The notes below the pieces were generated by a model. It did not search any database. It saw nothing but the letters and a program-made list of their open reading frames with translations, and was not told the origin of the DNA. A program made the position numbers and the translations under genes. Below are positions 1 to 42,312 of a stretch of DNA of 64,000 bases, one piece after another (positions within the stretch are counted from its first letter, which is position 1; each line of letters starts with the position of its first letter). Origin of the DNA: a virus; IMG/VR virus record IMGVR_UViG_3300046373_000039, positions 1 through 64,000 of that record; one strand, given 5' to 3'.

Positions 1-14
1 CCCCCCCCCCCCCC
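1..14. other. Poly-C run at the left edge
   Basis: Fourteen consecutive C at the first positions of the window. Nothing else in the window resembles it. It may be a true genome end, a homopolymer added in library preparation, or an assembly artefact. Sequence alone cannot decide. Confidence 0.9.
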
Positions 15-20
15 TCAGAA

Positions 21-57
21 AGACACTTAGCTTGTATTAGTGAGTGTCTATTTTTAT
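21..57 (+). terminator. Rho-independent terminator, rightward
   Basis: A 7-bp perfect stem (AGACACT at 21-27 with AGTGTCT at 43-49) is followed by ATTTTTAT. It would stop rightward transcription entering from left of the window. That makes sense if the genome is circular or permuted and a rightward unit ends here. Confidence 0.55.
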
Positions 58-79
58 GTCTGGAAATATGTGAAAGCCT

Positions 80-229
80 TTATTTGTAAGGGGTGTAGTC
101 TGTGAACTTACTGGATATCTCGTAGTAGGGCTTAACGCTCCTAGACACCACAGGCAATACCCATGCCAACTTTGCCAAATATAGAGAAATTCTATCAGCA
201 GACCTCACCCAATAGCTTTCCTCTATCAT
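80..229 (-). CDS. Small hypothetical protein (49 aa)
   Basis: Leftward ORF with ATG at 229 preceded by an AGG-containing sequence about 8 nt upstream, ending in TAA. The product is rich in aromatic and basic residues and has a hydrophobic stretch in the middle (LYLAKLAWVLPVV), which could be membrane-associated. No family recognised. The weak ribosome binding site and isolated position make it less certain than the genes further right. Confidence 0.35.
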   Translation of the reverse strand: MIEESYWVRSADRISLYLAKLAWVLPVVSRSVKPYYEISSKFTDYTPYK

Positions 230-11557: not shown

Positions 11558-11748
11558 TTCCAAATCTCACAAAATTCAACCTCGTCGACCCAATATTCAA
11601 TATCAGATGTCTGGTAATTCCCTTGCATACTCTTTGCAGCCATGCTAGCTGTATCTTGAGTAGAATAGATTGCTACGTTTGATCGAGCATAGCGAGTCCC
11701 TGTCCATTCATCACAGACAACTACGTATAGATTTTCTGGTGCTTTCAT
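11554..11748 (-). CDS. Hypothetical protein (64 aa)
   Basis: ATG at 11748 overlapping the previous stop. Sequence suggests a small alpha-beta fold (NLYVVVCDEWTGTRYARS, DTASMAAKSMQGNY) ending EVEFCEIWK. No family recognised. Confidence 0.65.
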   Translation of the reverse strand: MKAPENLYVVVCDEWTGTRYARSNVAIYSTQDTASMAAKSMQGNYQTSDIEYWVDEVEFCEIWK

Positions 11749-11909
11749 TAGTGTAATTTCCCAAGGTCAGTATAATCATCAAGAAACTTAAAAGATGTGC
11801 GTTTCTCAATCTCTCTTGCGCAAGCCCAAATGTAAAGTACGTCGCAATAGACTGTGAACCAAACATTCGACCCATTACTGTGTTCAAATTTCAACAGATA
11901 ATTATTCAT
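11748..11909 (-). CDS. Small hypothetical protein (53 aa)
   Basis: ATG at 11909 preceded by GGAG; TAA at 11748. Aromatic and mixed (MNNYLLKFEHSNGSNVWFTV, CDVLYIWACAREIEKR), consistent with a beta hairpin plus helix. Coupled to both neighbours. Function unknown. Confidence 0.6.
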   Translation of the reverse strand: MNNYLLKFEHSNGSNVWFTVYCDVLYIWACAREIEKRTSFKFLDDYTDLGKLH

Positions 11910-12312: not shown

Positions 12313-13662
12313 CTATTTCTTAGAAATCTTGCAATATTTATCTGATCCTAACACATCCTTCCATGCCTGTACCATAGCTGCTTGCAATAAATCTTCAACC
12401 GATTCTCGGCAGCAGAATGAATCATGATAGCATAGAGCAACCTCACCATTTTGTATCATCAAATCAATCACACGTAAAGCAATATCACTGTCAATCTTCT
12501 GTAACCATACTCCCTTATCACTATAAAATTCCTTTTCAATCACATAGTTATGATCTGCCAGTGCTTGAATAATCTTTCCTGTATCAGGCTTGTCAACCCC
12601 AAGAAATTCACGGTCTTTTTCTTCACGCAGATTGTCTTTAAATATTTCATTACCAAGTGTCCGTTTGGTCTGTGCAAAATCTACACAGTTAATAGACAGC
12701 AGCAATGCACGTTTATACAAAGCTCGTACAGGATCGTATTTAGCCAGTCCATATTTCATTTTATGCTTAGCAATCAACATCTTATCAACAGTCAAGAACG
12801 ATTTATCAGCATCATAAGGATCAAAAGAATCTGTTACTAAATCAGCAATTTCTGGATTATTGTTATAATAAAGAGAATATAGAGCATGAGGGTGGTTGGC
12901 TTTATAGTCCAATTCACAAATCTTCTCTTTGTTTATAGTAATATGTTCTAGTCGGTAGTCTTCTGGTAATAGCTGGATACCACCACCATGAACGAACAAT
13001 CTACCACCATGGAACAAATCGCCACTAAATGATCGCTTGTACTCCACCAGCGGTAAAGGCTCACCCATGAATTCAATCTGTACTTCAGTTAAGCTTTGGT
13101 TATAAGTATTCATCTCAGCAACCATTTTAAAGAACTCCTCGTTTTGCTCAATTAACATCTGTTCTTTTGTCTTTCGATCTTTAATTACAACAGGGTCAAT
13201 CAAACAACCTTCTGCTACATAAAGCTTTATTTGGTTGTCATCAAACAGATTCAATAGCTTATCTTCAAATCGGATAATGCTAGGATAAGACAACCAATCA
13301 CTACGTGTATCTTTGTTACCTAATAGTAGTGTAACATATCCTTCTTCCTGTAGGCTGTCAAGCACAGAATTCACTTGTCTTGCCCCAATCCCACATATAT
13401 TTCCAGACCAATAGCTAGCCTTCAGCCTAACACTGAATCCTTTATAACCATTTCGTATAGCTTTACTTGTGTTAGTGAAGAACCATTGAATGGCGTTATA
13501 CTTCTTATCTCCATACCTATTAGTAAAGGCGTCTACAATAAGATTATATGCTTTATTCTCTTCTCTAAAGGGTTTACCTTTCATGGTAGAGAGCAATACC
13601 TTATACTTCTCAACTCCCTCTATTTCTCTTACTTTCATCTTATTCCAATCCTCATCCCTCAC
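12313..13662 (-). CDS. Palm-polymerase-like protein (449 aa)
   Basis: GTG start at 13662 (ATG at 13638 possible). The N-terminus (about 40-115) looks like a winged-helix region with GIGARQVNSVLDSLQEEGYV. From residue 217 on a series of motifs appears in the order seen in family A DNA polymerases and T7-like RNA polymerases: an FHGGRLF stretch, ELDYKANHPHALY (candidate motif A, D252), YKRALLLSIN (317-325, motif B-like), LQKIDSDIALRVI (387-399, like the segment before motif C) and CYHDSF (413-416, motif C, D414; T7 RNA polymerase also has HDSF). I know similar motifs from unnamed plasmid and phage proteins. Catalysis is inferred, not shown. It is among the first genes of the leftward early operon, and the phage has its own replicative polymerase elsewhere, so the role is likely different: transcription, priming or regulation. 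Confidence 0.55.
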   Translation of the reverse strand: MRDEDWNKMKVREIEGVEKYKVLLSTMKGKPFREENKAYNLIVDAFTNRYGDKKYNAIQWFFTNTSKAIRNGYKGFSVRLKASYWSGNICGIGARQVNSVLDSLQEEGYVTLLLGNKDTRSDWLSYPSIIRFEDKLLNLFDDNQIKLYVAEGCLIDPVVIKDRKTKEQMLIEQNEEFFKMVAEMNTYNQSLTEVQIEFMGEPLPLVEYKRSFSGDLFHGGRLFVHGGGIQLLPEDYRLEHITINKEKICELDYKANHPHALYSLYYNNNPEIADLVTDSFDPYDADKSFLTVDKMLIAKHKMKYGLAKYDPVRALYKRALLLSINCVDFAQTKRTLGNEIFKDNLREEKDREFLGVDKPDTGKIIQALADHNYVIEKEFYSDKGVWLQKIDSDIALRVIDLMIQNGEVALCYHDSFCCRESVEDLLQAAMVQAWKDVLGSDKYCKISKK

Positions 13663-13686
13663 TATCCTCCTATATGGGAAACAAAC

Positions 13687-13773: not shown

Positions 13774-13873
13774 GAAGAATACCCCTTTGATTATTCATGA
13801 CAAGCATTTGCCGATCTTTTAGCTTAAATCTCTCGCCAGTAGATACATCAATGATTTTGAATTTCTTTTTCAT
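13763..13873 (-). CDS. Short ORF (36 aa), or 5' part of a frameshifted gene
   Basis: The ATG at 13873 overlaps the preceding TAA (TAATG) and has GAGGAAAG upstream. Product MKKKFKIIDVSTGERFKLKD followed by RQMLVMNNQ and four residues that seem out of frame. One base less in CAAAGGGGT at about 13784-13792 would give a continuous 61-residue protein with the 28-aa ORF. Function unknown; basic beta-rich start. Confidence 0.55.
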   Translation of the reverse strand: MKKKFKIIDVSTGERFKLKDRQMLVMNNQRGILLGW

Positions 13874-14064
13874 TATGCTTTCCTCACCAAATAACCAAGC
13901 ACCTTTAACATCTCTTCACTAAGATCCATTTTGTAAAGAATATTGATAATCTCTTGCTTCTCCTCCGCTGCATACCTATCTTCAAGAATCTTCTTGCAGA
14001 CCATCATACCTTCACCAGTTTCTTCACGAAGCTTACGAACATCTTCTGCTGTAATTGTTTTCAT
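13873..14064 (-). CDS. EF-Ts N-domain (UBA-like) small protein (63 aa)
   Basis: Residues 3-27 (ITAEDVRKLREETGEGMM then VCKKILED) closely match the UBA-like N-terminal domain of elongation factor Ts (VKELRExTGAGMMDCKKAL), which binds EF-Tu. The rest is a short helical tail (IINILYKMDLSEEMLKVLG) with no EF-Ts core. A stand-alone version in a phage could bind EF-Tu or act as a general protein-binding domain. The resemblance is from memory of the family and needs a profile search. Second gene of the leftward early unit. Confidence 0.6.
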   Translation of the reverse strand: MKTITAEDVRKLREETGEGMMVCKKILEDRYAAEEKQEIINILYKMDLSEEMLKVLGYLVRKA

Positions 14065-14067
14065 CTT

Positions 14068-14412
14068 TTAGCTCCAAACAACGTTATGGAAATTCTGAGC
14101 AGAGTGTACACGAACCTTGTCTTCCAGTCTCTGCGTACAGTTCGGCATATTAGCTTGCAACCAGTCTTCAATCAATCGCCAATCAACTACTTGGCTTGTG
14201 GGGTCAATAAACAACACTTTCTTTTTGTTGACAACCGCGGTAGTTAACGATATGAATACAGGCATGTCACCTAGACGGCCTACAACAACACCTGTACCAA
14301 AACAGTTCTGAATCCAATCAACCTTTTCATGCCATTGCTGCCAAAGACAAAAGTCCTCAAAGGTTGTAGCTTCTACTACAGACACAACGTCTTTCAAGAA
14401 ATCTTCATACAT
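14068..14412 (-). CDS. Hypothetical protein (114 aa), first leftward early gene
   Basis: Start chosen at ATG 14412 (MYEDFLKDVVSVVEATTFED), with GAGGAGAGG upstream; the in-frame ATG at 14439 lacks a site. Mixed alpha-beta with hydrophobic strands (GTGVVVGRLGDMPVFISLTT, KKKVLFIDPTSQVVDW) and a Trp-rich start. First gene after the leftward promoter at 14448-14476, so it is likely among the earliest products. No family recognised. Confidence 0.7.
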   Translation of the reverse strand: MYEDFLKDVVSVVEATTFEDFCLWQQWHEKVDWIQNCFGTGVVVGRLGDMPVFISLTTAVVNKKKVLFIDPTSQVVDWRLIEDWLQANMPNCTQRLEDKVRVHSAQNFHNVVWS

Positions 14413-14447
14413 TTTGCCTCTCCTCATCCATTTATCCAACAGCCCTC

Positions 14448-14476
14448 ATAGTACCCAACAAATCCGCAGTAGTCAA
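14448..14476 (-). promoter_or_regulatory. Leftward promoter of the divergent control region
   Basis: TTGACT (14476-14471), 17-nt spacer, TACTAT (14453-14448) on the leftward strand, 36 nt upstream of the start at 14412. Confidence 0.6.
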
Positions 14477-15984: not shown

Positions 15985-17844
15985 TTGAGTAATATTAGAG
16001 AGGTTATATCTCACTATCTTGATATCTCTGGCGACAAATGCTGTTGTCCTTTTCATAAGGAACGTACACCTTCGCTGAATATCTTTGATGAGACAAATTC
16101 ATTCTATTGTTTTGGCTGTGGTCAAAGTGGTGATGAAATTGAATTTGTAAAAGAGTACAAAAGGTTGACATTTCCTAATGCTGTGAAGGAGGTGTGTTCA
16201 ATTCTAAAACTGACTAAAGAGGAGCTTATGGAAAGTAAAGATAAAGAAAAAGTTGCTGAGAAAGTATCTGTTGAAAATGCTGAAGTTATGGATGTTGAAG
16301 AGGTTAAATCTCTAATTCAATCTACAGGCTATGTAAGTAATGGTTATCGCGGTATCCGAGATGAGATTAACAAATTCTTTGGACACTTGAGTAAACTTGA
16401 TAGTCAAGGCAATGTAATTGCTCGTTATTATCCTGAAACCAATAACAATGGTAAATTAACTGGTTACAAATGCCGAAATACACCAAAAGACTTTAGTCAC
16501 GGGAACCAAGGTATTACAGGCAGCAAAAGTCAATTAAGCGGTCAAGTAAAATTCAAATCTCCTGCCAAATATGTTCTCTATGTTGGTGGCGAGGAGGACA
16601 AAGCAGCAGCTTTTCAAATGCTCAAGGACAATCGTAAGGATCAGGAATTTGATTCTATTCCTGTAGTAAGCTCAACGGTTGGTGAGTTGACAGCGGCCAA
16701 ACAAGCTGCACAACAGTATGATTGGTTTGATCAATACGATATCATTATAATTGGTATGGATAACGATGAAGCTGGTCGAATTGCTGCAAAAAAGATTGCA
16801 GACGTGCTACCTAAAGAAAAAGTACGTATTGCTACTTGGTCAGGTAAAGATCCAAATCAGATGCTGATTGACGGCAAAGAGAAACAGTTTGTTCGTGATT
16901 TCTATAATGCTAAGGAGTTTATAAACAGTGGTATTTCCTCTTCTGGTGATGCTGAAGCGGGTCTTGAAGAATTCCTGACAGCGCCTAAGATTGGTCTTCC
17001 ACCACAACTTAGTAAGCTTCAGGCTGCAATGCGGGGTGGTATTAAGTCAACTGGTTCCGTTGTAAATATCATTGGCGACACGAGCATCGGTAAGAGCTTT
17101 CTGTCTGATACACTGATTTATCATTGGTTGTTCAATAGTCCTCGTGTACCAACTATTGTTAGTCTTGAACGTACCAAAGAAGAGTTGACAATTGATTTAC
17201 TTTCCATGCACCTTAAGAAAAACCTGATGTGGTTTACAGATGGTCATGATGCTGTTGACTATTTGAATCAACCAGAAGTTCAGCTACTGAAAAATGAGCT
17301 TCTTTACAACGAAGCTGGTGAACCTCGATTCTTTATCATTGACGAGCGTGAAGGTGATATTGAACTTCTGAAGCGTCAGATGGAGAAAAGTGGTAAAGTT
17401 AATGACTCACGATTGATGGTTATTGACCCACTAACTGACTTCTTGCGGTCTTTGGGAACAGAAGTACAAGAGAATTTTATGATGTGGCAGAAGCTGCAAA
17501 AGAAGAATGGTTTTGTATTTATCAACATTCTTCACACACGCAAACCACCAACTGATAAAGATGGTAATGTCCGCAAGGTTACGGAATATGATGCGTTGGG
17601 GTCCGGGACATTTATCCAGTCAGCAGACGTTAACATTGTGATCAATCGTGATAAGATGGCCTCAGATCCGATTGAGAAGAATACGACCTATGTTGACATG
17701 CCTAAGTGTCGTGGGGGTATCACTGGTGAGATTTGTGCGCTATACTATGACGCTGAAACTCGTCAACAATATGATCGTGATGAGTATTTTAATAATCCAG
17801 TAGAAGAACCACCGCAACATCATGCGGATGAGATTGATTTTTAA
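15985..17844 (+). CDS. T7 gp4-like DNA primase-helicase (619 aa)
   Basis: TTG start at 15985 with GGGAGA upstream. The N-terminal CHC2-type zinc domain has CPFH (C21, H24) and CFGC (C42, C45). A TOPRIM domain follows, with the acidic GGEED near residue 201 and the DND motif in IIIIGMDNDEAGR near 258. The C-terminal DnaB/RecA-like helicase has Walker A GDTSIGKS near 367, Walker B LMVIDPLTDF near 478, and an NILHTRK stretch like motif H4. Fused primase and helicase of about 570-620 residues is the T7 gp4 layout: RNA primer synthesis and 5'-3' unwinding at the fork. It leads the replication block, and an HNH gene separates it from the polymerase. Confidence 0.93.
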   Translation: MSNIREVISHYLDISGDKCCCPFHKERTPSLNIFDETNSFYCFGCGQSGDEIEFVKEYKRLTFPNAVKEVCSILKLTKEELMESKDKEKVAEKVSVENAEVMDVEEVKSLIQSTGYVSNGYRGIRDEINKFFGHLSKLDSQGNVIARYYPETNNNGKLTGYKCRNTPKDFSHGNQGITGSKSQLSGQVKFKSPAKYVLYVGGEEDKAAAFQMLKDNRKDQEFDSIPVVSSTVGELTAAKQAAQQYDWFDQYDIIIIGMDNDEAGRIAAKKIADVLPKEKVRIATWSGKDPNQMLIDGKEKQFVRDFYNAKEFINSGISSSGDAEAGLEEFLTAPKIGLPPQLSKLQAAMRGGIKSTGSVVNIIGDTSIGKSFLSDTLIYHWLFNSPRVPTIVSLERTKEELTIDLLSMHLKKNLMWFTDGHDAVDYLNQPEVQLLKNELLYNEAGEPRFFIIDEREGDIELLKRQMEKSGKVNDSRLMVIDPLTDFLRSLGTEVQENFMMWQKLQKKNGFVFINILHTRKPPTDKDGNVRKVTEYDALGSGTFIQSADVNIVINRDKMASDPIEKNTTYVDMPKCRGGITGEICALYYDAETRQQYDRDEYFNNPVEEPPQHHADEIDF

Positions 17845-17861
17845 GGAGATAGATTTGATTT

Positions 17862-18449
17862 ATGGTAAGTAAATATTGTAAAGATTGTGATGAAGAAAAG
17901 GATCAGGAATACTTTTATCTACGAAACGGTAAACCAATCGGTCATTATTGTATCGAATGTGTATGTCGTAAGAATAGAGAACGTTGGATTAATGGGTACA
18001 AAGAAAAATCTGTAGAAACTCGTAAACTTTATGCTGAAAAGAACAGAGACGTTATACTCCAGTACCATAGGGATTATTACAACACTGAGCTTGGTAGAGC
18101 TAAAAGTATGATGAAGACTATCAAGAAACGAATGAAAACTTGGGGAATTTTAGATGAATTAGATTTTGAAGAATCTTATCTGATTGAGCTAATGAAAGCT
18201 GGTTTTTGTGTCGAAACTGGTATAGAATTTGTTTACGAGAAACAAGATAGATTTAAATGTCACCCTTATTCTCCTTCTGTTGATCGGATTGATTCTACAA
18301 AAGGTTATACTAAAGATAACGTTCGTATGGTAATCTGGCAGTATAACCTTATGAAAGGTGAGATGACGGATGAAGAACTTTTAATTGTTTGTGAGAGGAT
18401 TTCCGATTGGAAAAGAAATGGTACGAATCAGATTTCGTTTATGACTTAG
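17862..18449 (+). CDS. HNH-type homing endonuclease (195 aa)
   Basis: An N-terminal zinc ribbon (CKDC near residue 6, CIEC near 32) is followed by a basic helical region and a C-terminal HNH-like core (SPSVDRIDSTKGYTKDNVRM), the S-x-D-R-I-D ... GY...N-V/I form common in phage free-standing endonucleases. It lies between primase-helicase and DNA polymerase, and its last 43 nt overlap the polymerase start. The ATG at 17862 has AAGGAG only 14 nt upstream; a closer TTG (17855) is out of frame. It probably cuts phage genomes that lack it and spreads by recombination. Confidence 0.8.
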   Translation: MVSKYCKDCDEEKDQEYFYLRNGKPIGHYCIECVCRKNRERWINGYKEKSVETRKLYAEKNRDVILQYHRDYYNTELGRAKSMMKTIKKRMKTWGILDELDFEESYLIELMKAGFCVETGIEFVYEKQDRFKCHPYSPSVDRIDSTKGYTKDNVRMVIWQYNLMKGEMTDEELLIVCERISDWKRNGTNQISFMT

Positions 18450-20587
18450 AATCATTCCCTAATTGCTTCTCTATGAGCATCATCCATGCTTCTGGGAAAC
18501 ACATGCGAGTCTTTGAGATTAGTGATCGTAAGAATGAAATTGAAGGGATTGCTAAATGCTTGCGGTATCTGGTTCAGAATAAATGTCGTATGGTGGGGTT
18601 TAACAACAACTCATACGACTACACTCTTATCCATGAAATCATCAAGTCTCTTAAGGAAGCAAAGCAAACGGGTAAGACTCCGAATATTACAGCTCAGAAG
18701 CTTTATAAATTGACAACTCAAATTATCACAAAGATGCAGTCTGAAGATAAGTGGTACGGTATTAAAGAAGCTGACCACTTTATTCAGCAGGTCGATTTGT
18801 ACAAAATCCATCATATGGATAATATGGCAAAAGCTACATCGTTGAAGGTGTTGGAAGTCAATATGCGGTCTACTAACGTGGAAGACCTACCTTTCCCTGT
18901 TGGTAAGAAGTTAACAAGCGATGAAATTGATGTATTGTTGCACTATAACAAACATGATGTTAATGAGACTCTGAAGTTCTACTACTATTCCTATGAGGCC
19001 ATTCAGCTTCGTAAAGAATTGTCTGAGAAGTTTGGATTTGACTGTACAAGCTTTAGTGACAGTAAGATTGGTGAGACTCTATTTATTAATCGTCTTGAGC
19101 AAGCTCAGAAAGGTTTATGCTATGAGTACAGTAAACACGGTGGTCGTAAGATTAATCAGACTAAGCGCGATAACATAAAGATTAAGGATTGTCTTTTTGA
19201 CTACTTGAAATTTGATCGCCCTGAGTTTAAAGCTGTACATGATTGGTTGAGCAATCAGACCGTGCAAGAGACTAAAGGTGTCTTCAATGATTATGAAGAA
19301 CATCAGATTGGTGATCTTGCTAAGTATGCTCAGATGAAAACCAAAAAGGTGTTGTTCAAGAATAGATTGAATCTCGATAATAAAGATAAACCTAAAGCTG
19401 ACTTTGATTTTACTGATCTAGACCATTTGGAAGAGCTTCAGCGGCTGAAAGATGAATTCTTGAAAGAACATCCTATGGGATATTTTGAAGAGAAGGAAAC
19501 TAAAACCTCACGCTCTCATAAGCTTAAGGTAACTGCTTTTTATCGAGTGGTTGAGGCGATCAACACTGTAATTGATGGTAAGGTGTATGTATATGGTACT
19601 GGTGGTATTCACATGTCTATTGAAAGTGAGACTGTGAGGGCAGATGATGAATGGACAATCATAGACGCTGACGTCACCTCAATGTACCCCAGCATTTCTA
19701 TTGCTAACAATGTTTACCCTGAACATCTTGGTATCACATTCTGTAAAGTGTACAAAGATCTGTTTATGGAACGTGGTAGATATCCAAAAGGCAGCGGCCC
19801 AAATGGTGCAATTAAGCTTGCTTTGAACTCTGTGTACGGTAAGTCCAACAGTGAGTTTAGTCCTCTGTATGATCCAAAATATACGCTGACTATCACCATT
19901 AACGGTCAACTTTGCCTGTCTATGCTGGCTGAAAAACTGATTGGTCTTGGTTGCAAGATGATTCAGTGTAATACCGATGGTGTGACAGCCTTGGTTCCAC
20001 GTAGTAAAGAAGCTGAGTATTATGAAATTACAAAAGCGTGGGAAAAGACCGTTGGACTTCAGTTGGAATATGCTGTATATTCAATGATGGCCCTCGGGAA
20101 TGTCAATAATTACGTAGCGGTTTACGAAGACGGTAAGGTGAAGAGTAAAGGTCAGTATGAAGTTGCTCACTTTGAAAAGCTTGGGTGGTCTAAAAACCAT
20201 TCTGCAATGATCGTACCAAAGGCTGCATTGGATTACATTGTCTATGGTAAGGATATTGAAGAAACTATTCGTTCCCACAAAGACGAATTCGACTTCCTTT
20301 TGCGTGCCAAAGTACCACGTAGCTCAAAGCTGTATTTGTGCTATGAAGATGGTCGTGACATTCAACAACAGAATATTTGCCGATACTATCCATCTGAACA
20401 CGGCGGTAAATTGGTTAAGTTGATGCCAGCTTTGATTGATGGTGGTGAGTGGCGTAGACTTGGTATGGACACAGCATACTCAGTAGAAACTTGTAATAAC
20501 ATTACAGATTTTGATTGGAAAAAACTCAATTATGAGTATTATATTAACGAAGCTTTAAAGCTCGTAGAAGGTGTGGGGTTAAAATGA
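18407..20587 (+). CDS. Family B DNA polymerase with 3'-5' exonuclease (726 aa)
   Basis: TTG start at 18407, with GAGG 8 nt upstream, inside the HNH gene. Exonuclease motifs: YDLESF (D13, E15), GFNNNSYDYTLI near 64-75, and HYNKHDVNETLKFY as the third motif. Polymerase motifs: DADVTSMYPSI (D420/D422, motif A), KLALNSVYGKSN (K470-N474-YG, motif B) and CNTDGV (D524, motif C). The order and SxYPS, NSxYG and TD forms place it in family B. It differs from typical family B enzymes: the first Asp of the usual DTD is Asn, and only about 40 residues lie between motifs A and B, so the fingers must be short. This is the replicative polymerase, working with the primase-helicase and SSB nearby. Confidence 0.9.
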   Translation: MEKKWYESDFVYDLESFPNCFSMSIIHASGKHMRVFEISDRKNEIEGIAKCLRYLVQNKCRMVGFNNNSYDYTLIHEIIKSLKEAKQTGKTPNITAQKLYKLTTQIITKMQSEDKWYGIKEADHFIQQVDLYKIHHMDNMAKATSLKVLEVNMRSTNVEDLPFPVGKKLTSDEIDVLLHYNKHDVNETLKFYYYSYEAIQLRKELSEKFGFDCTSFSDSKIGETLFINRLEQAQKGLCYEYSKHGGRKINQTKRDNIKIKDCLFDYLKFDRPEFKAVHDWLSNQTVQETKGVFNDYEEHQIGDLAKYAQMKTKKVLFKNRLNLDNKDKPKADFDFTDLDHLEELQRLKDEFLKEHPMGYFEEKETKTSRSHKLKVTAFYRVVEAINTVIDGKVYVYGTGGIHMSIESETVRADDEWTIIDADVTSMYPSISIANNVYPEHLGITFCKVYKDLFMERGRYPKGSGPNGAIKLALNSVYGKSNSEFSPLYDPKYTLTITINGQLCLSMLAEKLIGLGCKMIQCNTDGVTALVPRSKEAEYYEITKAWEKTVGLQLEYAVYSMMALGNVNNYVAVYEDGKVKSKGQYEVAHFEKLGWSKNHSAMIVPKAALDYIVYGKDIEETIRSHKDEFDFLLRAKVPRSSKLYLCYEDGRDIQQQNICRYYPSEHGGKLVKLMPALIDGGEWRRLGMDTAYSVETCNNITDFDWKKLNYEYYINEALKLVEGVGLK

Positions 20588-21165
20588 CGGGCATTAGGGA
20601 CTATAAGGAGGCTTCACTATATTTTGAATATGATGAAAATTCACCTTCAGGACTAAAGTGGAAAGAAAATTCAGGATGGACAGGTAAATATTTTAAAAGA
20701 TTTCAAGGTACATATGCTGGTTCAAAATGTAAAAATCAAAAAAGGGTTTTCACAGCATGGGTAATGAGAGTAAATTCTAAAAATTATTTAGCTCATAGAA
20801 TAATCTGGTGCCTATTTAATGGCAATATAGACGAAAGTTTAAATATTGATCATATAGATGGTAATCCATTAAATAATAAGATTGACAATTTGAGGCTAAT
20901 CACTCAGACTATTAATAACAGAAATCATGCAAAACAGGTGAATAATAAAACTGGAAAAACTGGCGTGAGTAGATTGACTACGAGAGGCGTTGAGTATTAT
21001 TCTGCAACATGGTCGGAACCGTTAAAAGGAGCTAGATCTAAAAGGTTCAGTATCAAAAAGTATGGAGAGGCTAAAGCTTTTGAGCTAGCCAGCGAATATA
21101 GGGATATGAAAATGGCTGAATTTGATCAGTTAGGATTAACCTACTCTGATAGACATGGATTATGA
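20584..21165 (+). CDS. HNH homing endonuclease with AP2-like end (193 aa)
   Basis: The ATG at 20584 overlaps the polymerase stop (ATGA). The core is HRIIWCLFNGNIDESLNIDH followed by IDGNPLNNKIDNLRLIT, the HNH_3 form with H-N-N. The C-terminus (KTGKTGVSRLTTRGVEYYSA, then KAFELASEYRD) resembles the AP2-type DNA-binding domain found in such endonucleases. Its AT content is visibly higher than the polymerase, which suits recent arrival. It is inserted directly after the polymerase gene. Confidence 0.85.
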   Translation: MTGIRDYKEASLYFEYDENSPSGLKWKENSGWTGKYFKRFQGTYAGSKCKNQKRVFTAWVMRVNSKNYLAHRIIWCLFNGNIDESLNIDHIDGNPLNNKIDNLRLITQTINNRNHAKQVNNKTGKTGVSRLTTRGVEYYSATWSEPLKGARSKRFSIKKYGEAKAFELASEYRDMKMAEFDQLGLTYSDRHGL

Positions 21166-22240: not shown

Positions 22241-22933
22241 ATGACTACTTCTGTAATTGTAAAACAACTTCCTAAGTCTGGTACTCTGGAAACCTTTAAC
22301 GTGTACATCTTGAACACGCCTGTGTTCTATGCGAAAGTGCATGACGTGAAGTTTAAATATCAAAGCACTACTGATAAAGAATACAGCCTCACTCCTTTTG
22401 TAGACGAGGAGACAAAAGACAGGCTGCTAGACGAAGTTATGTTGAACAAAACTTTTGCCCAAGTTGGTAAGGATAAAACATCAAAGGCGCCGCGGCGCAT
22501 CAAGTATCCTCTGTCTTCACAAGTTGAAGAGGGCAAGACAAACTATGATGTAGTTGATGGTTTGTTTGGCTTCACTGTAGCAAAACCTGAGTTCAGCAAG
22601 GCCGGTAACAAGATGTCAGTCAATGTTATTGACAAAGATGGTCAAGCGTTCACAGCCGATATCGGCAATGGGTCTGTATGTACTCTGAAACTTTTTGGTT
22701 ACAAAAACGTTGAAGGTCAACTGACGGTTACGTTGGACACTGTACAGGTCATTGAACATGTACCTTATGAAAGCAAAGGCGGTGACGGTAGCGTTGAAGA
22801 TGAGGTTCTGGGTAACTACAAGGTTAAGAAGGCTGAGCCTAAAACAAATGAAGAGGAAGCTCCAGCACCAAAGACTAAAGCGGCACTAGAGCCTGTAGCG
22901 ATTGACGAAGAGGAAGACCCACTTCCATTCTGA
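22241..22933 (+). CDS. Single-stranded DNA-binding protein, T7 gp2.5-like (230 aa)
   Basis: The N-terminal three quarters is beta-rich, as expected for an OB fold (FNVYILNTPVFYAKVHDVKF, SVCTLKLFGYKNVEGQLTVT). The C-terminus is acidic and ends DEEEDPLPF, the flexible acidic tail with a final aromatic residue seen in gp2.5-type SSBs, where it contacts polymerase and helicase. Size matches T7 gp2.5 (232 residues). It sits within the replication block. I rely on fold pattern and tail more than on residue identity. Confidence 0.8.
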   Translation: MTTSVIVKQLPKSGTLETFNVYILNTPVFYAKVHDVKFKYQSTTDKEYSLTPFVDEETKDRLLDEVMLNKTFAQVGKDKTSKAPRRIKYPLSSQVEEGKTNYDVVDGLFGFTVAKPEFSKAGNKMSVNVIDKDGQAFTADIGNGSVCTLKLFGYKNVEGQLTVTLDTVQVIEHVPYESKGGDGSVEDEVLGNYKVKKAEPKTNEEEAPAPKTKAALEPVAIDEEEDPLPF

Positions 22934-23893: not shown

Positions 23894-24961
23894 GTGAGTG
23901 ATAAATACGAACTAGTCTTACTGGATGCTGACACTCCGGTCTTTAAAGCTGCAAAGTCTGTGCAACAAGATTACATTATCGTAAGCCGTAAATCTGATGG
24001 CGCAACTAAACGGTATAAGAACAAAACTGAATTCTGGGGACACCACAAAAAGAAAGAGGGTGGTGAGCTTGCAAAGAACAATCTTATTCGTATTGAGAGA
24101 GGACTTGAGCCAAATAAACCAGAAGATTATGAAGTAGAAGAGTGTGCTGAATTGGTACCTGAAATTGAGGATCATGTAGCAGCAGGAGTAGAACAGTTTG
24201 ACCGATTTGTAGGTAAAATTAAGGGATTAAACCTTGCTCAAGACTACAGGCTAGGCATTGGTGGGAATGGTAACTTTCGCTACGAAATGTCTCAACAATT
24301 GCCCTATAAAGGGGCTAGGAAGGACAAGCCTTTATTGTTCCTTGAAATTAAAGAAGCCATTATTAAAAAGTATCGAAACAAAGTTGTAGTGGTTGATGAT
24401 GAAGAAGTAGATGATTGGTGTTCAATCAAGGGTTATGAGAACTACAAACATTTTCTTAAAACAGGTAAGTGGAAATATGTTCTTGGGTTCTTGGATAAAG
24501 ACATCAAACAAGTTATTTCTCCTCAGTTCAACTTTGATGATCAGTTTCCAGAAGTGATTATTCCAACCCCGTTTGATGCTGCTAAATGTTTTGCAAGCCA
24601 ATGCCTAAGCGGGGATCTGTCCACGGACAATATTCTTGGACTTCCTAACTTTACAAAAGAGATTCAAGAGAAATATAAGTTAGGTGGAACTCGTGGAATT
24701 GGTAAGGCTACTGCTCTGAAGTACCTTGAATCGGCAACAACTATCAAAGAGTTGTTTGAACGAGTTGTTGAGGCTTATAAGAGCTATTACGGAACACAGA
24801 AGCAAGAGCTTGTCAGTCACACAGGACAGTGCTTGATGTGGGATTGGTTGGACTTTTTGCAAGACAATGCTCAGCTTCTCTACTTGCGAAGAGAGGAAAG
24901 CGAGATGTATCATATTTGTACTACATTAGATAAATTAGGGATTGATTATGGAGTTGATTGA
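23894..24961 (+). CDS. 5'-3' exonuclease, T7 gp6/flap-nuclease family (355 aa)
   Basis: GTG start at 23894 with GGGAGA upstream. Acidic metal-binding clusters typical of the FEN/5'-exonuclease fold are present: LLDADTP near residue 8, VVDDEEVDDW near 168-177, FLDKDIKQV near 200 and LSGDLSTDNILGLP near 240. The helix-hairpin-helix DNA-binding motif follows (GGTRGIGKATALKYL, about 265-280). Role: removal of RNA primers or resection for recombination at the replication fork. An HNH gene overlaps its last codons. Confidence 0.85.
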   Translation: MSDKYELVLLDADTPVFKAAKSVQQDYIIVSRKSDGATKRYKNKTEFWGHHKKKEGGELAKNNLIRIERGLEPNKPEDYEVEECAELVPEIEDHVAAGVEQFDRFVGKIKGLNLAQDYRLGIGGNGNFRYEMSQQLPYKGARKDKPLLFLEIKEAIIKKYRNKVVVVDDEEVDDWCSIKGYENYKHFLKTGKWKYVLGFLDKDIKQVISPQFNFDDQFPEVIIPTPFDAAKCFASQCLSGDLSTDNILGLPNFTKEIQEKYKLGGTRGIGKATALKYLESATTIKELFERVVEAYKSYYGTQKQELVSHTGQCLMWDWLDFLQDNAQLLYLRREESEMYHICTTLDKLGIDYGVD

Positions 24962-25682
24962 CAGAAAAACGGCATTAGATTTAGGGTTAACCACTTATTT
25001 CACCGGTAAGGCTTGTTTGAAAGGACACATTACAGTGAGACGTGTGGGTTGTGGTAGTTGCATTGAGTGTCGTAGAATCAGAACTAAGAGGTGGCGAGAA
25101 GAGGGTAAACAGACAGAATTTGTTCCCGCAGGCAAGCCTTTACCATCCCAAGAGTTTTTAAGGGAATGTTTTGATTATATTTTTGAGACAGGTCAATTAA
25201 TTTGGAGGACTAGACCGAGGCATCATTTTGCAACTCAACGAGGTTGTAGTACAGCCAATTCTAGGTTTGCTAATAAAGTTGCTGGACACTATCACAGCAG
25301 GAATGGATACCTTGAAATTAGATTTGATAAAAATCTATATAAGGGACATAGGATTATCTATAAACTTTTGACTGGAGAAGATCCTGAAGGCATGCTTGAC
25401 CACATTGATGGTGATGTATCTAACAATAGAATAGAAAATCTTAGGGCTTGCACTGCACAAGAAAATGCCAGAAACTCAAATAAGAGGTCGCAGAAAGGTA
25501 AAGCAACGAGTGTATACAAAGGTGTTAATAAACATAGAAATCTTTGGAAAGTTACATTGACCATAAATGATAACGAGGTGAAGATAGTCAGAACTTTTAA
25601 AACTGAGATTGAAGCTGCGCTATGTTACGACGAGCTGGCTAAAGAGCATTATGGAGAATTTGCACAGTTGAATTTCCCATGA
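24948..25682 (+). CDS. HNH homing endonuclease with AP2 domain (244 aa)
   Basis: Start at ATG 24948, which overlaps the exonuclease end and has AGGG upstream. An N-terminal zinc ribbon (GKACLKGH ... CGSCIECRRIRTKRWRE), the HNH core (HRIIYKLLTGEDPEGMLDHI then DGDVSNNRIENLRAC) and a C-terminal AP2-like DNA-binding domain (TSVYKGVNKHRNLWKVTLTI ... ALCYDELAKEHYGEFAQLN) are all visible. Same family as the gene at 20584. The stop overlaps the next gene (ATGA). Confidence 0.88.
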   Translation: MELIDRKTALDLGLTTYFTGKACLKGHITVRRVGCGSCIECRRIRTKRWREEGKQTEFVPAGKPLPSQEFLRECFDYIFETGQLIWRTRPRHHFATQRGCSTANSRFANKVAGHYHSRNGYLEIRFDKNLYKGHRIIYKLLTGEDPEGMLDHIDGDVSNNRIENLRACTAQENARNSNKRSQKGKATSVYKGVNKHRNLWKVTLTINDNEVKIVRTFKTEIEAALCYDELAKEHYGEFAQLNFP

Positions 25683-27066: not shown

Positions 27067-27141
27067 GAAGACAGTACACAAACAATTTCTATTAAAGATG
27101 AGGAGTGATTGGTTTGAAACATTTGATCATTGTTGGTAAAG

Positions 27142-27612
27142 ATGACAGCAACAACTGAACGAGTATGTAAAAATTGTGAAGTTATTTTTACTAGGGTAGT
27201 CAGAGCCGCACAGTTGTTTTGTTCGGCTGATTGTAGGAAGAAATATTGGAACAAACAGTGTTCAGACTCCAGCCACAAATGGCACAAAAACAATCCAGAA
27301 AGAGTGATGTTACGATCAGCTAAACATAGAGCTAAGAAACAAGGGGTGGCTTTTGATTTGGTCTTAGGGGATATCGTAATACCGGAATATTGTCCTGTGC
27401 TAGGCATCAAACTAGAATGTAATGCAGGTAATGGAGGAGCTAAACAGAACTCACCATCTCTGGATAGAATAGTCCCCGCTCTAGGTTATGTGAAAGGTAA
27501 TATTCAGGTTATGAGTCATTTAGCAAATGTAATGAAACACGATGCAAACCCTGAGCAACTTCTTAATTTCGCTGCTTGGGTTATTGAAACTTACCGAGGA
27601 GAAACAAATTGA
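27142..27612 (+). CDS. HNH-type homing endonuclease (156 aa)
   Basis: Start at ATG 27142; a TTG at 27130 is possible. Zinc ribbon with CKNC near residue 10 and CSADCRKKYW near 33, a basic linker (NNPERVMLRSAKHRAKKQG), then ILGDIVIPEYCPVLGIKLE-like and SPSLDRIVPALGYVKGNIQV, the S-L-D-R-I ... GYVKGN-I-x-V-M-S core of phage free-standing endonucleases. Inserted just before the metallophosphoesterase, whose TTG start overlaps its stop. A 14-codon TTG ORF with a good ribosome binding site (from 27114) precedes it and may be a remnant of the interrupted gene start. Confidence 0.85.
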   Translation: MTATTERVCKNCEVIFTRVVRAAQLFCSADCRKKYWNKQCSDSSHKWHKNNPERVMLRSAKHRAKKQGVAFDLVLGDIVIPEYCPVLGIKLECNAGNGGAKQNSPSLDRIVPALGYVKGNIQVMSHLANVMKHDANPEQLLNFAAWVIETYRGETN

Positions 27613-37702: not shown

Positions 37703-39961
37703 TTATGCTACATAAACAGCGTCAGTTATATTATTAACTGTGTTTGCTGTTGTGGAAGCATCTGGTGCAATAATAGAAAGTCCACTAGTCAAAATATTTC
37801 CCGACACCATACATTTAGCCGTAGCTGTCCCAATAGTTTGTATTGAAGCACCACTACCTGCCAAGAGGTTGGTGGAATTCCCAGTAAATCTAACACCAGT
37901 AGCATTGTTGACTTGAATTGATGGGCTTGCAAAAGCTGTTGTATTCCAAATGTCATTATTAGAAATTTTAGAGTTTGACAGACTACCAACCCCGCCAAGA
38001 TATATCGAGAAGCCAGTTACCTTTAAGGTATTGTCAAATATCTTGACCCTTTTCCAAGCAAGGTTGTTGTTCCCAACAATTCCAGAAGTTGATGAGATTG
38101 AGTTATCGCTAATCTCCAAACCATCCATAGCGACCGCATTACCGCTACCGAGGCTAATCCCATTATCCATACTTACAATATTATTACCGATAATCCTACA
38201 ACGAGCAACTTGCCAATCAATTCCTATACTACCGCCGCTAATACTGTTCCCAATAATCAGAGAAGGTTGCGTGCCAGTGTTAAGTTGGCTTCTAATACCA
38301 ATAGCATTTACAGATTGCATATTGATAATATTACTAGAAATAATGAACTGACCATCATGTGAAAATCCTGTAACAGAGCCCACAGAGACAGCTACTGTAA
38401 AAGAGCCTTGTAGGTTATTTCCAGAAACAATTATTTTATCTGTATGGCTGTTTAAGAATACCCCAAGTTGTTGTATACCAGTTACATTATTATCACAGAC
38501 ATTAATAGACACCCCGGCTAATACAGCACCAGGTGCTGGAAGTAGCGGATTACCGTTCAAGTCAACGTTTGAAGACTCAACCTTACAGAAGTGTAGAACG
38601 TTGTCTCCGGTATTACCCAGAATTGAACCACCCCTGCACCCTTGCGAAAAGTCAATGCAAAAACCACCTCCAAGGTTTTGGAAATTGTTATTAATAGCTC
38701 TCGGTCTATAACAGTTTGTTGCGACCATTCCATGAACTACTGTGCTTCTAACATCACAACCTTCCATCCATAAGTTGTACGATGTTTTGGAGCCAGTTGG
38801 ATCTAGTGCGTATTGTCTACCCCCCAAGAATCCTATAAGTTGCCCAGTCAAGATACAATCTTTTAGACCGACGTTATCTACGGAACCATCTGAGGAAGCA
38901 TCAACGATTATTGCTGAATACCCATTTACAAATGAAATTCCTGAAACCGTGATATTCTTACCGTTAATAACTCTGAAAAATGCTTGCGGTGTTCCTGTGC
39001 CACCCCATGTCAAGATTGAGCTTGCACCTTCGCCTGTTACATTCTGTCCTGTCACTAGCGTTGCTGCTGACGTTCTGTTCGGCTCTCTTCCACCTGGGTA
39101 AGATACTGTAGGTCCAATAGGAGCTACCTTGAAGTTACCAGAGGGAACGTGAAAAGGTAGACCAGTGTTTACAGCAGCCAAATAACCCGCCGTATCGTCT
39201 GTACCAGTTGTGCCGTTGTAATCGCCTTTACACCCAAATTGTCTTAAGGTTGGAGGAGATTGTTGGCACAGAACCAAGAACCCGCCATCAGTCATCGCAA
39301 TGACTGTACCACCATTTGCAGTTCCGGTTGTTTTTATGGTGTAAGATCCCCCACCACCATCACCAGCCAAATAGTAACCTAAGATAAATACGTTTTTAGA
39401 TGGACTATTTTTAGACAGTGCAATAGCTTCTGCAACATTTTGCACAACTTGAAATGACTTTGCTATAATTGGAGTCCCTGTAACAGCCAAATCATTTCTT
39501 AGGGCATCCGTATATGCTGCTGATTGAGAACTTGCGACATCTAATTCTGACTGCGATGCAAAGAACCCAACATCTTCAAATGCAGCAGTGCCTAAACCTG
39601 TGATGGTAGTCTCTACAGCGTCTAGTCTTGAATCAATCTGAGATACGTTATCAACCACTACCATGGTTGTACCGTTGAATTGATAAGTGACACCAGTAGC
39701 TCTTAGGGTAACTACAAACCACTTAGGTACAGGGGAAGAGTACCAAGTGTTTTTGACAGCAAAATAAAGTCTGTTGTCTGTTGTCAGAAAATAAGCTGTT
39801 CCATTTACAACAGCAGGGAGAGAACTTACGATACCGTCGATATTTCTATCAAACATAAAAGAGAATTTCAAAAGATTCTCATCCATGCCTGTATTCCAAC
39901 CACTCTCTCCATATTCCCAGCCGTATTTTCCTTCTAGGAAAGGTGAAGTTTGTTGTGACAT
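37703..39961 (-). CDS. Tailspike B, beta-helix type (752 aa)
   Basis: The first ~100 residues (SPFLEGKYGWEYGESGWNTG, MDENLLKFSFMFDRNIDGIV, then LPAVVNGTAYFLTTDNRLYF) form a virion-binding head nearly identical in plan to the upstream paralogue. A linker and repeated short strands with N/G turns follow (SDGSVDNVGLKDCILTGQLI, GNSISGGSIGIDWQ, DNSISST), typical of right-handed beta-helix tailspikes that bind or cleave surface polysaccharide. No catalytic residues can be named. Paralogue of 40033-42312. Confidence 0.82.
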   Translation of the reverse strand: MSQQTSPFLEGKYGWEYGESGWNTGMDENLLKFSFMFDRNIDGIVSSLPAVVNGTAYFLTTDNRLYFAVKNTWYSSPVPKWFVVTLRATGVTYQFNGTTMVVVDNVSQIDSRLDAVETTITGLGTAAFEDVGFFASQSELDVASSQSAAYTDALRNDLAVTGTPIIAKSFQVVQNVAEAIALSKNSPSKNVFILGYYLAGDGGGGSYTIKTTGTANGGTVIAMTDGGFLVLCQQSPPTLRQFGCKGDYNGTTGTDDTAGYLAAVNTGLPFHVPSGNFKVAPIGPTVSYPGGREPNRTSAATLVTGQNVTGEGASSILTWGGTGTPQAFFRVINGKNITVSGISFVNGYSAIIVDASSDGSVDNVGLKDCILTGQLIGFLGGRQYALDPTGSKTSYNLWMEGCDVRSTVVHGMVATNCYRPRAINNNFQNLGGGFCIDFSQGCRGGSILGNTGDNVLHFCKVESSNVDLNGNPLLPAPGAVLAGVSINVCDNNVTGIQQLGVFLNSHTDKIIVSGNNLQGSFTVAVSVGSVTGFSHDGQFIISSNIINMQSVNAIGIRSQLNTGTQPSLIIGNSISGGSIGIDWQVARCRIIGNNIVSMDNGISLGSGNAVAMDGLEISDNSISSTSGIVGNNNLAWKRVKIFDNTLKVTGFSIYLGGVGSLSNSKISNNDIWNTTAFASPSIQVNNATGVRFTGNSTNLLAGSGASIQTIGTATAKCMVSGNILTSGLSIIAPDASTTANTVNNITDAVYVA

Positions 39962-40032: not shown

Positions 40033-42312
40033 CTATGCACTATATGATGCATTGATAATATTATTCGTATTAATAGTTCCCGCATTCGGGGTTCCTAAAA
40101 CAATAGGCCTATTGGATATATTGTTTGTGACTATGCAATTTGTAGTTGATGTTGATGTGGTTAAGAAGTTAAGACTTGAGGTGTTGGCATTCGATATATT
40201 TCCTACTACAGTGCAAGCAACTGGAGCCGGAAGTACTACGGCATCAAGTATTGGAGCTGTTGCATCTAGCCGATTATTATTAAATGTAAGCCTTGTAATA
40301 CTCGTAGGGGATGAACAGTAGAAAGCAGAAGAACTATAAGTAATTTGACTATTAACTACAGATATATTTTTAACTGCTGACGTCCCGGCAAAATTTATAC
40401 CAACACCTGCTGAAATAATATTTACCCCGGAAATAGATAAACTGGCCGTACCGCCTGTTGTATCCAACACCACGCCATTTGTCGCAGCCTTTATGAATCC
40501 ACCAGATATTGATACACCGTTACGTGCTACCCAAATACCATGTACCACATTCATAATACTATTATCAGAAAATATGTGAGGAGATGCACCATTTGTCATG
40601 GTGTCATAAATACCACCATTGGATGTACCTGCAATACCCGTCAGAATATTATCCGATATAATAACAGAACCTGCTGCTGAACTCGCGTAAGCCTGACCTA
40701 TAAGAATACCATTGAACACAAATTTGGAGAGTACGTTACCTGTTACGGTAATGTTATCAGCTGCGGTATTTAGAAGTATACCATTCTGAGAAATAGTATC
40801 AACAACATTACCAATTACACTAACTTTATAAGAAGAGAACAATGCCTCATTAGATCCTGAAACATCTGAAGACTCTACTTTACAGAAATACTGACAGTTG
40901 GTTGCTGTGTTGGATGAAATGACACAACCTCTTGTACCCTGAGACATGTCAATACACATTCCCTGAGTTACATCTTTAAAGTTATTACCAATTGCTTCTG
41001 CATTATATGTATTTGTAAATACGATAGAGTGGCTGCCACCTGGAGCCTTAAAGTTGCAATTTATAACTCTAATGTTTTCTGAATATTTGGAGCTTGGGTC
41101 AATTGCAAGCTGCCTACCACCAATAATATCAATCAGGTTATTTACAGTCGTGCAGTTCTCAACAACAACATTCTTAACTGATCCATCTGTGAGCGGATCG
41201 ACTATAAGAAGTGCAAAGGCATCTCTAGCAAACAAGTCCTTTATGCACACATCTGTGGCGTTTTGTATCTTAAAGAAACATTGTGGTAGTGTGCCAACAG
41301 GGCTTTTGCTTGTACCCCATTTTAGTTGAGATAACACACCATCTCCACGCACTGTTTGTCCGGTTGAAAGAACACAAGCTGAGGTACGATTACCCTCATT
41401 GACATATGGAGAAGGGAAAACAATAGTTGTTGTTAGAGGAGAAAATATCCACGTCCCAGAAGGTATGTAAACATTTTTACCTGTAGCTACAGCAGCAAGG
41501 ATAGCTGAGGTATCTATAGACTCATTGGCAGTATTACCATTACCTACACCACCAAACATATACGGAGTAACTTCGGCTTCTGTGTTTACCCTGTTAAATC
41601 TTCCAACCCCTGTTACCGCTGTTGGTTTGAACCATATACCGTTATCGTCTACATTAGTTGCTGTGGGCTTCCATGTTAAAAATCCATTACCTTTACCAGT
41701 ACCAGAAGTATGCTCTAGAAGGTAATAAACTGTTCTAGTGGTGGTAGGTGCAGTCAAGGATCTTAACTCTGCAACTGTAGCAACAACTTTAATAGAGTTG
41801 CCAACAATAAAAGCTCCCGAATCCGTAGAAAGCGATGCCAAGACCGCCCGCAGCGTATCTGTATAAGTATTAGCTTGTGAAGATACAACATCTAATTGAG
41901 CAGGGCTGGCAAAATCAGATATATTTTTAGTCGCAGCACTGCCAAGAGTAGAGAGGGTTAACTCAATTGCATTTAATCTTGTAGATACTTGAGCAGGAGT
42001 ATTAATAGTGGAAGCAGCTACCCCATTAAAAATATAGTTTTGACCTGTACTCCTAATGGTGAAAATAGCCCATTTGGGAGTTGGTGAAGAGTAGTATGTG
42101 TTGTTTACAGCAAAATACAGTCTATTATCCGTTGTGTTGAAGTAGGCTGTGCCATTTACAACAGCTGGTAACGTACTCACTATAGAGTCAACATTTCTAT
42201 CGAACATGAAAGAAAACTTTAATAAATTTTCGTCCATTCCATCATTCCAACCACTTTCACCATAGGACCAACCATACTTACCCTCTAAGAATGGGGAGGT
42301 TTGTTGAGCCAT
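40033..42312 (-). CDS. Tailspike A, beta-helix type (759 aa)
   Basis: Same N-terminal virion-binding region as 37703-39961 (SPFLEGKYGWSYGESGWNDG). The central parts also correspond (GMCIDMSQGTRGCVISSNTA against GFCIDFSQGCRGGSILGNTG, then YFCKVESSDV against HFCKVESSNV), while the C-terminal halves differ more. Beta-helix coils with repeated NI/V turns dominate. The ORF starts 3 nt after the adaptor gene. Two full-length paralogues suggest two receptor or capsule specificities. Confidence 0.82.
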   Translation of the reverse strand: MAQQTSPFLEGKYGWSYGESGWNDGMDENLLKFSFMFDRNVDSIVSTLPAVVNGTAYFNTTDNRLYFAVNNTYYSSPTPKWAIFTIRSTGQNYIFNGVAASTINTPAQVSTRLNAIELTLSTLGSAATKNISDFASPAQLDVVSSQANTYTDTLRAVLASLSTDSGAFIVGNSIKVVATVAELRSLTAPTTTRTVYYLLEHTSGTGKGNGFLTWKPTATNVDDNGIWFKPTAVTGVGRFNRVNTEAEVTPYMFGGVGNGNTANESIDTSAILAAVATGKNVYIPSGTWIFSPLTTTIVFPSPYVNEGNRTSACVLSTGQTVRGDGVLSQLKWGTSKSPVGTLPQCFFKIQNATDVCIKDLFARDAFALLIVDPLTDGSVKNVVVENCTTVNNLIDIIGGRQLAIDPSSKYSENIRVINCNFKAPGGSHSIVFTNTYNAEAIGNNFKDVTQGMCIDMSQGTRGCVISSNTATNCQYFCKVESSDVSGSNEALFSSYKVSVIGNVVDTISQNGILLNTAADNITVTGNVLSKFVFNGILIGQAYASSAAGSVIISDNILTGIAGTSNGGIYDTMTNGASPHIFSDNSIMNVVHGIWVARNGVSISGGFIKAATNGVVLDTTGGTASLSISGVNIISAGVGINFAGTSAVKNISVVNSQITYSSSAFYCSSPTSITRLTFNNNRLDATAPILDAVVLPAPVACTVVGNISNANTSSLNFLTTSTSTTNCIVTNNISNRPIVLGTPNAGTINTNNIINASYSA

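What the first reader, a model, noticed from the sequence alone, without database searches (positions are those of the whole stretch)
12313..13662. A second polymerase-like protein among the first leftward early genes
Seen: motifs in the order FHGGRLF ... ELDYKANHPHALY (D252) ... YKRALLLSIN ... LQKIDSDIALRVI ... YHDSF (D414), after an N-terminal region like a winged helix. Established: family A DNA polymerases and T7-type RNA polymerases carry a motif A Asp, a motif B Lys/Arg helix and a motif C HD (HDSF in T7 RNA polymerase). Inference: a compact palm enzyme used early, distinct from the family B replicase of this phage. It could be a transcriptase, primase or regulatory palm domain. I know of no characterised member of this exact layout.
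Basis: partly seen in the sequence, partly recalled or inferred. Interest (0 to 1): 0.75.

Follow-up and report, generated by a model that had tools for sequence, protein, structure and literature searches.

The report
Spare Pol I-like phage DNA polymerase
The gene encodes a small, intact-looking relative of DNA polymerase I that this phage carries beside its main DNA polymerase; the family was named divPolA2 in 2024 and no biochemical test of it was found, and here it is traced into bacterial genomes and shown to occur as two alternative versions in cholera phages.

Summary
Window 12313-13662 (-) encodes a 449-aa protein with every listed motif where stated. The palm-enzyme reading holds too: the AlphaFold model is confident (pLDDT 90.6), all 50 listed PDB matches are family A DNA polymerases, and a family profile aligns with Pol I in register (D252 with D705, R313xxxK317 with R754/K758, D414 with D882), far above shuffled controls. 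D252 is conserved in 103/103 relatives and D414 in 102/103.

It is not new in kind. It belongs to divPolA2 (Yutin et al. 2024), described as an extra polymerase without a known thumb in phages that also carry a regular one.

Added here: relatives form a large family in bacterial genomes; the Pol I steric-gate position is an almost invariant His (Gly in T7 RNA polymerase), Glu in one clade; 82 ICP1-type records carry one of two deeply diverged versions, never both; the nearest relative keeps only 68 C-terminal codons beside an HNH endonuclease.

I favour an accessory, exonuclease-less DNA polymerase (repair, gap-filling), with de novo priming the main rival. A transcriptase is unlikely: no shared phage promoter motif, and sigma-70-like sites are enriched. 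Early expression is not shown.

The parts
12313..13662 (-). divPolA2-type family A-like polymerase gene, 449 aa
   Evidence: (phrog_4756, E 1e-74)
13252..13545 (-). N-terminal domain with winged-helix topology (residues about 40-137)
   Evidence: AF2 models and DSSP; no significant PDB match, many winged-helix folds among the weak ones
12319..13077 (-). catalytic core: beta-hairpin, palm and fingers (residues about 196-448)
13000..13008 (-). GGR (219-221), hairpin Arg matching Pol I 'TGR' before QNIP; R221 in 102/103 relatives
12889..12915 (-). motif A ELDYKANHP: D252 (103/103) and H257 at the Pol I Glu710 steric-gate position
12712..12726 (-). motif B R313xxxK317 (each 102/103), O-helix equivalent
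12487..12504 (-). LQKIDS (387-392), conserved helix start aligned with Pol I 'iQG.aAD'
12418..12426 (-). motif C HDS: H413, D414 (102/103), S415
13666..13671 (-). AGGAGG Shine-Dalgarno-like site, 3 nt before the GTG start
   Evidence: sequence
13873..14439 (-). two upstream co-directional small ORFs (123 aa phrog_18096 of unknown function; 63 aa)
14448..14476 (-). sigma-70-like site TTGACT-17-TACTAT before the leftward cluster (such matches are at chance level in this stretch)
15985..17844 (+). context: DnaG-type primase-helicase (CHC2 zinc ribbon, Toprim, DnaB_C)
18407..20587 (+). context: the phage's regular DNA polymerase (phrog_1252)

Best explanation
The protein is an active, metal-dependent, template-directed polymerase of the family A type, of the divPolA2 branch. 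It has no exonuclease and no recognisable thumb. The fold and intact catalytic motifs are shown by computation only. It most likely extends DNA 3' ends with dNTPs: D252 and D414 hold the two metals, R313/K317 of the fingers helix position the incoming nucleotide, R221 contacts the template, and H257 acts as the bulky gate that Glu710 provides in Pol I. The winged-helix N-terminal domain probably grips DNA in place of a thumb (inferred). The phage has its own polymerase, primase-helicase and an SSB-like protein, so the enzyme most likely does accessory synthesis (gap filling, repair or recombination, lesion bypass) rather than genome copying (inferred).
For: AF2 model with pLDDT 90.6 and pTM 0.86. 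Foldseek against PDB: all 50 listed hits are family A DNA polymerases, probability 1.00, best E 1e-5. Family profile against PolA profile: E 2.7e-5, score 46.7 against a maximum of 22.1 for 100 column-shuffled controls, motifs in register. Catalytic residues conserved in 102-103 of 103 relatives. divPolA2 representative AUR84708: BLASTP E 4e-7, hhalign 99.8%; Barba1A homologue 99.9%. The D+5 position is His in 97 relatives and Glu, as in Pol I, in a clade of four, never Gly. The experimentally studied family A relative CcPol is dNTP-selective and keeps E710 (PMC7581432). Own replication genes present. Single copy in an apparently complete genome (127-bp end repeat). No repeated promoter motif; sigma-70-like sites enriched, 14 against 5.3 expected.
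Against: I found no assay of any divPolA2. Foldseek TM-scores to Pol A are low (about 0.33) because only the core matches. Asn325 replaces the usual Tyr eight residues after the motif B Lys. The steric-gate argument is by analogy. The phage-only profile against PolA is weak on its own (E 0.006). No conserved neighbour points to repair.
Confidence: 0.6

Rival explanations
1. It is a primase-polymerase: it starts DNA strands de novo on single-stranded template, with the winged-helix domain doing the template-gripping job that the SSB-like MP protein does for CcPol.
For: TV-Pols were predicted to be prim-pols (PMC2579912). CcPol-MP primes de novo with dNTPs (PMC7581432). The thumb helix proposed to block de novo initiation in Pol I (PMC10061031) belongs to a thumb that is not seen here. 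Bacterial relatives are sometimes next to integrase or resolvase genes.
Against: This phage already has a DnaG-type primase-helicase 2.3 kb away. No conserved SSB or D5 helicase partner next to the gene. I found no test of a family member.
Confidence: 0.22
2. It is a single-subunit RNA polymerase (transcriptase), as the first reader and Yutin et al. considered.
For: Motif C 'HDS' matches T7 RNA polymerase. Yutin et al. found structural matches to mitochondrial and N4 RNA polymerases (PMC11348598).
Against: The D+5 gate is His or Glu, not Gly. No profile match to T7 RNA polymerases beyond motif C (E 0.027; but the PolA-against-RNAP control also fails, so this is weak). No repeated phage promoter motif, and sigma-70-like sites enriched. 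No T7-type promoter-recognition domain seen. ICP1, which carries a homologue, is not predicted to encode an RNA polymerase (PMC9040626).
Confidence: 0.08
3. It acts in phage-host conflict, for example synthesis past defence-made DNA damage, or untemplated synthesis, which would explain the alternative alleles and patchy retention.
For: Two deeply diverged versions are mutually exclusive at one ICP1 locus; ICP1 swaps alleles at counter-defence and helicase loci (PMC9040626). Gene reduced to a remnant in the nearest relative. Variable neighbourhoods.
Against: Allele swapping is common at phage loci, and homing endonucleases can drive it. No defence target known; no PADLOC match.
Confidence: 0.08
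4. It is a catalytically dead, regulatory palm domain.
For: Probably inactive RRM-only forms exist among PolA-SSB relatives (PMC10061031).
Against: D252 in 103/103 and D414 in 102/103 relatives, with Arg and Lys of the fingers equally conserved.
Confidence: 0.02

Closest known systems
divPolA2 (Yutin et al. 2024, Virol J 21:200, PMC11348598)
   Same: Homologous over nearly the full length (hhalign 99.8-99.9%), same size, intact palm, no standard thumb, no exonuclease, extra to a regular polymerase; the replication and packaging genes of this phage also resemble those of barbaviruses and relatives.
   Different: The target sits in the main His-gate/HDS branch; the published representative AUR84708 is in a branch with Glu gate and FDE. 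The N-terminal domain called unassignable there shows winged-helix topology here.
TV-Pol family (Iyer, Abhiman and Aravind 2008, PMC2579912)
   Same: Hairpin Arg, two palm Asp, fingers RxxxK, 400-600 aa, mobile-element and virus setting; bacterial relatives beside integrase or resolvase in some loci.
   Different: No two-helix thumb and no D5 helicase link seen; direct sequence match to a phage said to carry a TV-Pol (Ma-LMM01, MAP_030) is weak.
CcPol-MP / PolA-SSB primases of SCC elements (PMC7581432, PMC10061031)
   Same: Family A catalytic core used by mobile elements, without the full Pol I architecture.
   Different: CcPol is close to Pol I, keeps a (shortened) thumb and part of the exonuclease domain, and works with an OB-fold partner next to a helicase; none of these is seen here.
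T7-like single-subunit RNA polymerase
   Same: HDS motif C and the general palm motif order.
   Different: Gate residue, size, no T7-type promoter-recognition domain found, no repeated phage promoter motif.

Membership tests
divPolA2 | Homology to the published representative AUR84708 and to barbavirus copies | tested here: met
   BLASTP E 4e-7; hhalign 99.8% over 359 columns and 99.9% with Barba1A gp034; common phage clade in the tree
divPolA2 | Palm with conserved catalytic residues, no exonuclease, no standard thumb, globular N-terminal domain | tested here: met
divPolA2 | Present in addition to a regular DNA polymerase | tested here: met
   Window 18407-20587 is phrog_1252 DNA polymerase, 44% identical to the Barba1A enzyme
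TV-Pol | Beta-hairpin with an absolutely conserved Arg | tested here: met
   R221 in 102/103, aligned with the Pol I TGR motif
TV-Pol | RRM-like palm with two conserved Asp | tested here: met
   D252 103/103, D414 102/103; Pol A fold matches
TV-Pol | Fingers with a conserved Asp and RxxxK | tested here: met
   R313/K317 each 102/103. The finger Asp may be that of the DPY motif (D281 in 86/103); this assignment is inferred
TV-Pol | N-terminal thumb of two antiparallel helices | tested here: not met
   Only one helix (175-192) precedes the hairpin in the model; winged-helix domain before it
TV-Pol | Sequence relation to a listed TV-Pol | tested here: inconclusive
   Ma-LMM01 MAP_030 is the best of 39 CDS tested from the first 50 kb, but only E 6e-4; that it is the published TV-Pol is a guess. 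Zamilon virophage protein in BFVD at E 8e-4
PolA-SSB primases (CcPol-MP) | OB-fold SSB partner and helicase in the same operon | tested here: not met
   No conserved adjacent partner in 49 phage loci; the next downstream ORFs are 53-66 aa
T7-like RNA polymerase | Small residue (Gly) at motif A D+5 and profile match to the family | tested here: not met
   His257; RNAP profile E 0.027, motif C only
Family A DNA polymerase superfamily | Motifs A, B and C in register on a family A palm/fingers fold | tested here: met
   the D252-D414 distance itself was not measurable here

The most novel reading that the evidence does not exclude
A family A-derived primase-polymerase in which a fused winged-helix domain replaces both thumb and SSB partner, starting DNA synthesis de novo, and shared between lytic phages and bacterial mobile elements.
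Probability: 0.2. Interest if true: 0.65.

Novelty: new member of a known kind. Interest (0 to 1): 0.4.

Why it matters
divPolA2 enzymes sit unassayed, mostly as 'hypothetical protein', in well-studied lytic phages (ICP1, barbaviruses, Aeromonas phages) that already have their own polymerase and primase, so their job is an open question. This report gives testable handles: a predicted His/Glu steric gate, a branch switch between Pol I-like and T7-RNAP-like motif C, a natural pair of alternative alleles in ICP1, and a natural near-deletion in a close relative. If de novo priming were found, it would extend the family A route to DNA primases, known so far from CcPol-MP, to lytic phages and without an SSB partner.

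Tried and rejected
Pfam, NCBIfam, PADLOC and PDB sequence searches gave nothing significant. Plasmid search empty. A broad 13-sequence alignment was too diverse for a collection scan. hhalign with the 30-row alignment against single T7 DNAP/RNAP sequences or small PolA/RNAP profiles failed; only the 103-row profile found PolA. A conserved operon partner (SSB, helicase) was sought and not found. A phage promoter motif was sought and not found. A second copy or T7-type RNA polymerase in the own genome: none (the PF00940 control rang nowhere, so that null is weak). N-terminal domain PDB search not significant. Gene-specific expression data for the ICP1 or barba18A homologue were not found in the main texts read.

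Full report
Observation. It is a real gene: about 1e-9 open frames of this length are expected by chance, the mismatch pattern against its sister gene is that of a conserved protein, and phrog_4756 (function unknown) matches residues 40-448 at E = 1e-74. Pfam, NCBIfam, PADLOC and the PDB sequence search are silent.

Relatives. tblastn finds 126 phage records, among them Aeromonas 2L372X, Pseudomonas M1, ICP1, Pseudoalteromonas J2-1 and many Vibrio phages, nearly all annotated 'hypothetical protein'. Viral contigs give 37 loci. A scan of bacterial genomes with the alphaproteobacterial branch gives 195 loci (80 kept), in Methylobacterium, Rhizobium, Nitrosomonas, Desulfovibrio and others. The tree splits a lytic-phage clade (31 rows) from a mostly bacterial clade (26 rows) with 97/93 support; the target is sister to L015 in the phage clade. 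Among 143 neighbour proteins of bacterial copies, phage integrase (8) and resolvase (5) are among the commonest known domains, which fits mobile elements in part of the loci.

Fold and active site. The AF2 model from 30 window and viral-contig sequences has pLDDT 90.6 and pTM 0.86. All 50 listed PDB hits are family A DNA polymerases, probability 1.00, best E 1e-5, about 8-12% identity; TM-scores near 0.33 show that only the catalytic core matches. A 103-sequence family profile aligns with a Pol I profile at E = 2.7e-5, score 46.7 against a maximum of 22.1 in 100 column-shuffled controls and 15.7 reversed. The register is GGR221 with TGR, Q230 with QNIP, D252 with the motif A Asp (E. coli D705), R313xxxK317 with R754/K758, LQ..DS with iQG.aAD, and H413-D414 with H881-D882 (E. 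coli numbers from own knowledge). D252 is invariant (103/103); D414, R221, R313 and K317 are each 102/103. Coordinates are not exported by the tool, so the distance between D252 and D414 was not measured.

DNA or RNA. The position five after the motif A Asp is Glu710 in Pol I, a gate against ribose, and Gly in T7 RNA polymerase (own knowledge; CcPol keeps E710, PMC7581432). Here it is His in 97 of 103. In one clade (L006, L052, L055, L056; 100/99 support) it is Glu, and the same four have an acidic residue after the motif C Asp (YDE, FDE, HDD, FDE), the Pol I pairing. By the tree this is one event, not four. A bulky gate argues for dNTPs; it does not prove it. The genome shows no repeated upstream motif as a T7- or N4-type transcriptase would need, while sigma-70-like sites are enriched before genes (14 regions against 5.3 shuffled, maximum 11). 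No RNA-polymerase family hit occurs in the own genome (weak null).

N-terminal domain. Folded alone (pLDDT 89.4) it shows helix-strand-helix-helix-strand-strand, a winged-helix topology. Foldseek finds no significant match; the weak ones are largely MarR-type and other winged helices. Only one helix precedes the hairpin, so the usual thumb is missing.

Context. The contig has an exact 127-bp end repeat, so it is probably complete. The phage has a CHC2-Toprim-DnaB primase-helicase, a DNA polymerase of the barbavirus type, an exonuclease and a protein with an acidic SSB-like tail (22241-22933). The gene lies in a leftward set of small ORFs facing away from that module and is by far the longest of them. 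No partner gene is conserved directly beside it in 49 phage loci.

Two natural experiments. First, in ICP1 and ICP1-like phages two versions of the gene, in different deep branches of the tree, occupy the same locus: 43 records have ORF100, 39 have the other, the accession lists do not overlap, and each of the 53 records MW794140-MW794192 has exactly one. This resembles the helA/helB exchange of 'functionally redundant alleles' described for ICP1 (PMC9040626); a search of that review for the gene by number found no mention. Second, in the nearest relative (83.8-kb contig, about 90% identical) only the last 68 codons remain, abutting an HNH endonuclease gene, and nothing else of the gene is in the record. 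So the gene is usually kept, but can be lost.

What is known. Yutin et al. 2024 (PMC11348598) described divPolA2 in 110 barbavirus genomes and others, with representative AUR84708; the target is homologous to it and to Barba1A gp034. They left function open between repair DNA polymerase and RNA polymerase. TV-Pol (PMC2579912) shares the hairpin Arg, palm Asp pair and RxxxK; its two-helix thumb is not seen here and a direct sequence link was inconclusive. CcPol-MP shows that a family A core can prime with an SSB partner; no such partner is seen here.

Mechanism, graded. Shown by computation: fold, motif register, conservation, membership of divPolA2, presence of other replication genes. Inferred: catalytic activity, dNTP use, DNA gripping by the winged helix, accessory role. 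Most likely it extends 3' ends in repair, recombination or gap filling; priming is the leading rival; transcription is unlikely; a dead domain is very unlikely.

Verdict. Interest is moderate because the family is widespread, apparently unassayed and now has clear tests.

Noticed in passing
L005:5554-7221 and L006:5302-6606: ICP1-type records carry one of two deeply diverged divPolA2 alleles at the same locus, never both (43 against 39 records, no overlap).
   Followed up: yes
L001:9379-10222: In the nearest relative the polymerase is reduced to 68 C-terminal codons abutting an HNH endonuclease ORF; the rest is absent from the 83.8-kb record.
   Followed up: yes
L006, L052, L055, L056: One divPolA2 clade has Glu at the steric-gate position together with an acidic residue after the motif C Asp, as in Pol I.
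   Followed up: partly
window 1-127 and record end 84157-84283: Exact 127-bp repeat at the two ends of the contig, suggesting a complete genome of about 84.16 kb although no completeness was listed.
   Followed up: partly
window 22241-22933: 230-aa protein with an acidic tail ending DPLPF, a probable ssDNA-binding protein between polymerase and exonuclease genes.
   Followed up: no
window 11748-11909 and L015:8292-8450: A 53-aa ORF near the polymerase is 89% identical between phages whose polymerases are only 47% identical, a sign of local mosaicism.
   Followed up: no
window 17862-18449, 20584-21165, 24942-25682, 27130-27612: Several ORFs that look like HNH or homing endonucleases lie between the replication genes.
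   Followed up: no
window 37703-39961 and 40033-42312: Two adjacent, probably tail-fibre-like, proteins share a 271-nt direct repeat (72% identity) at their 5' ends, as if duplicated.
   Followed up: no
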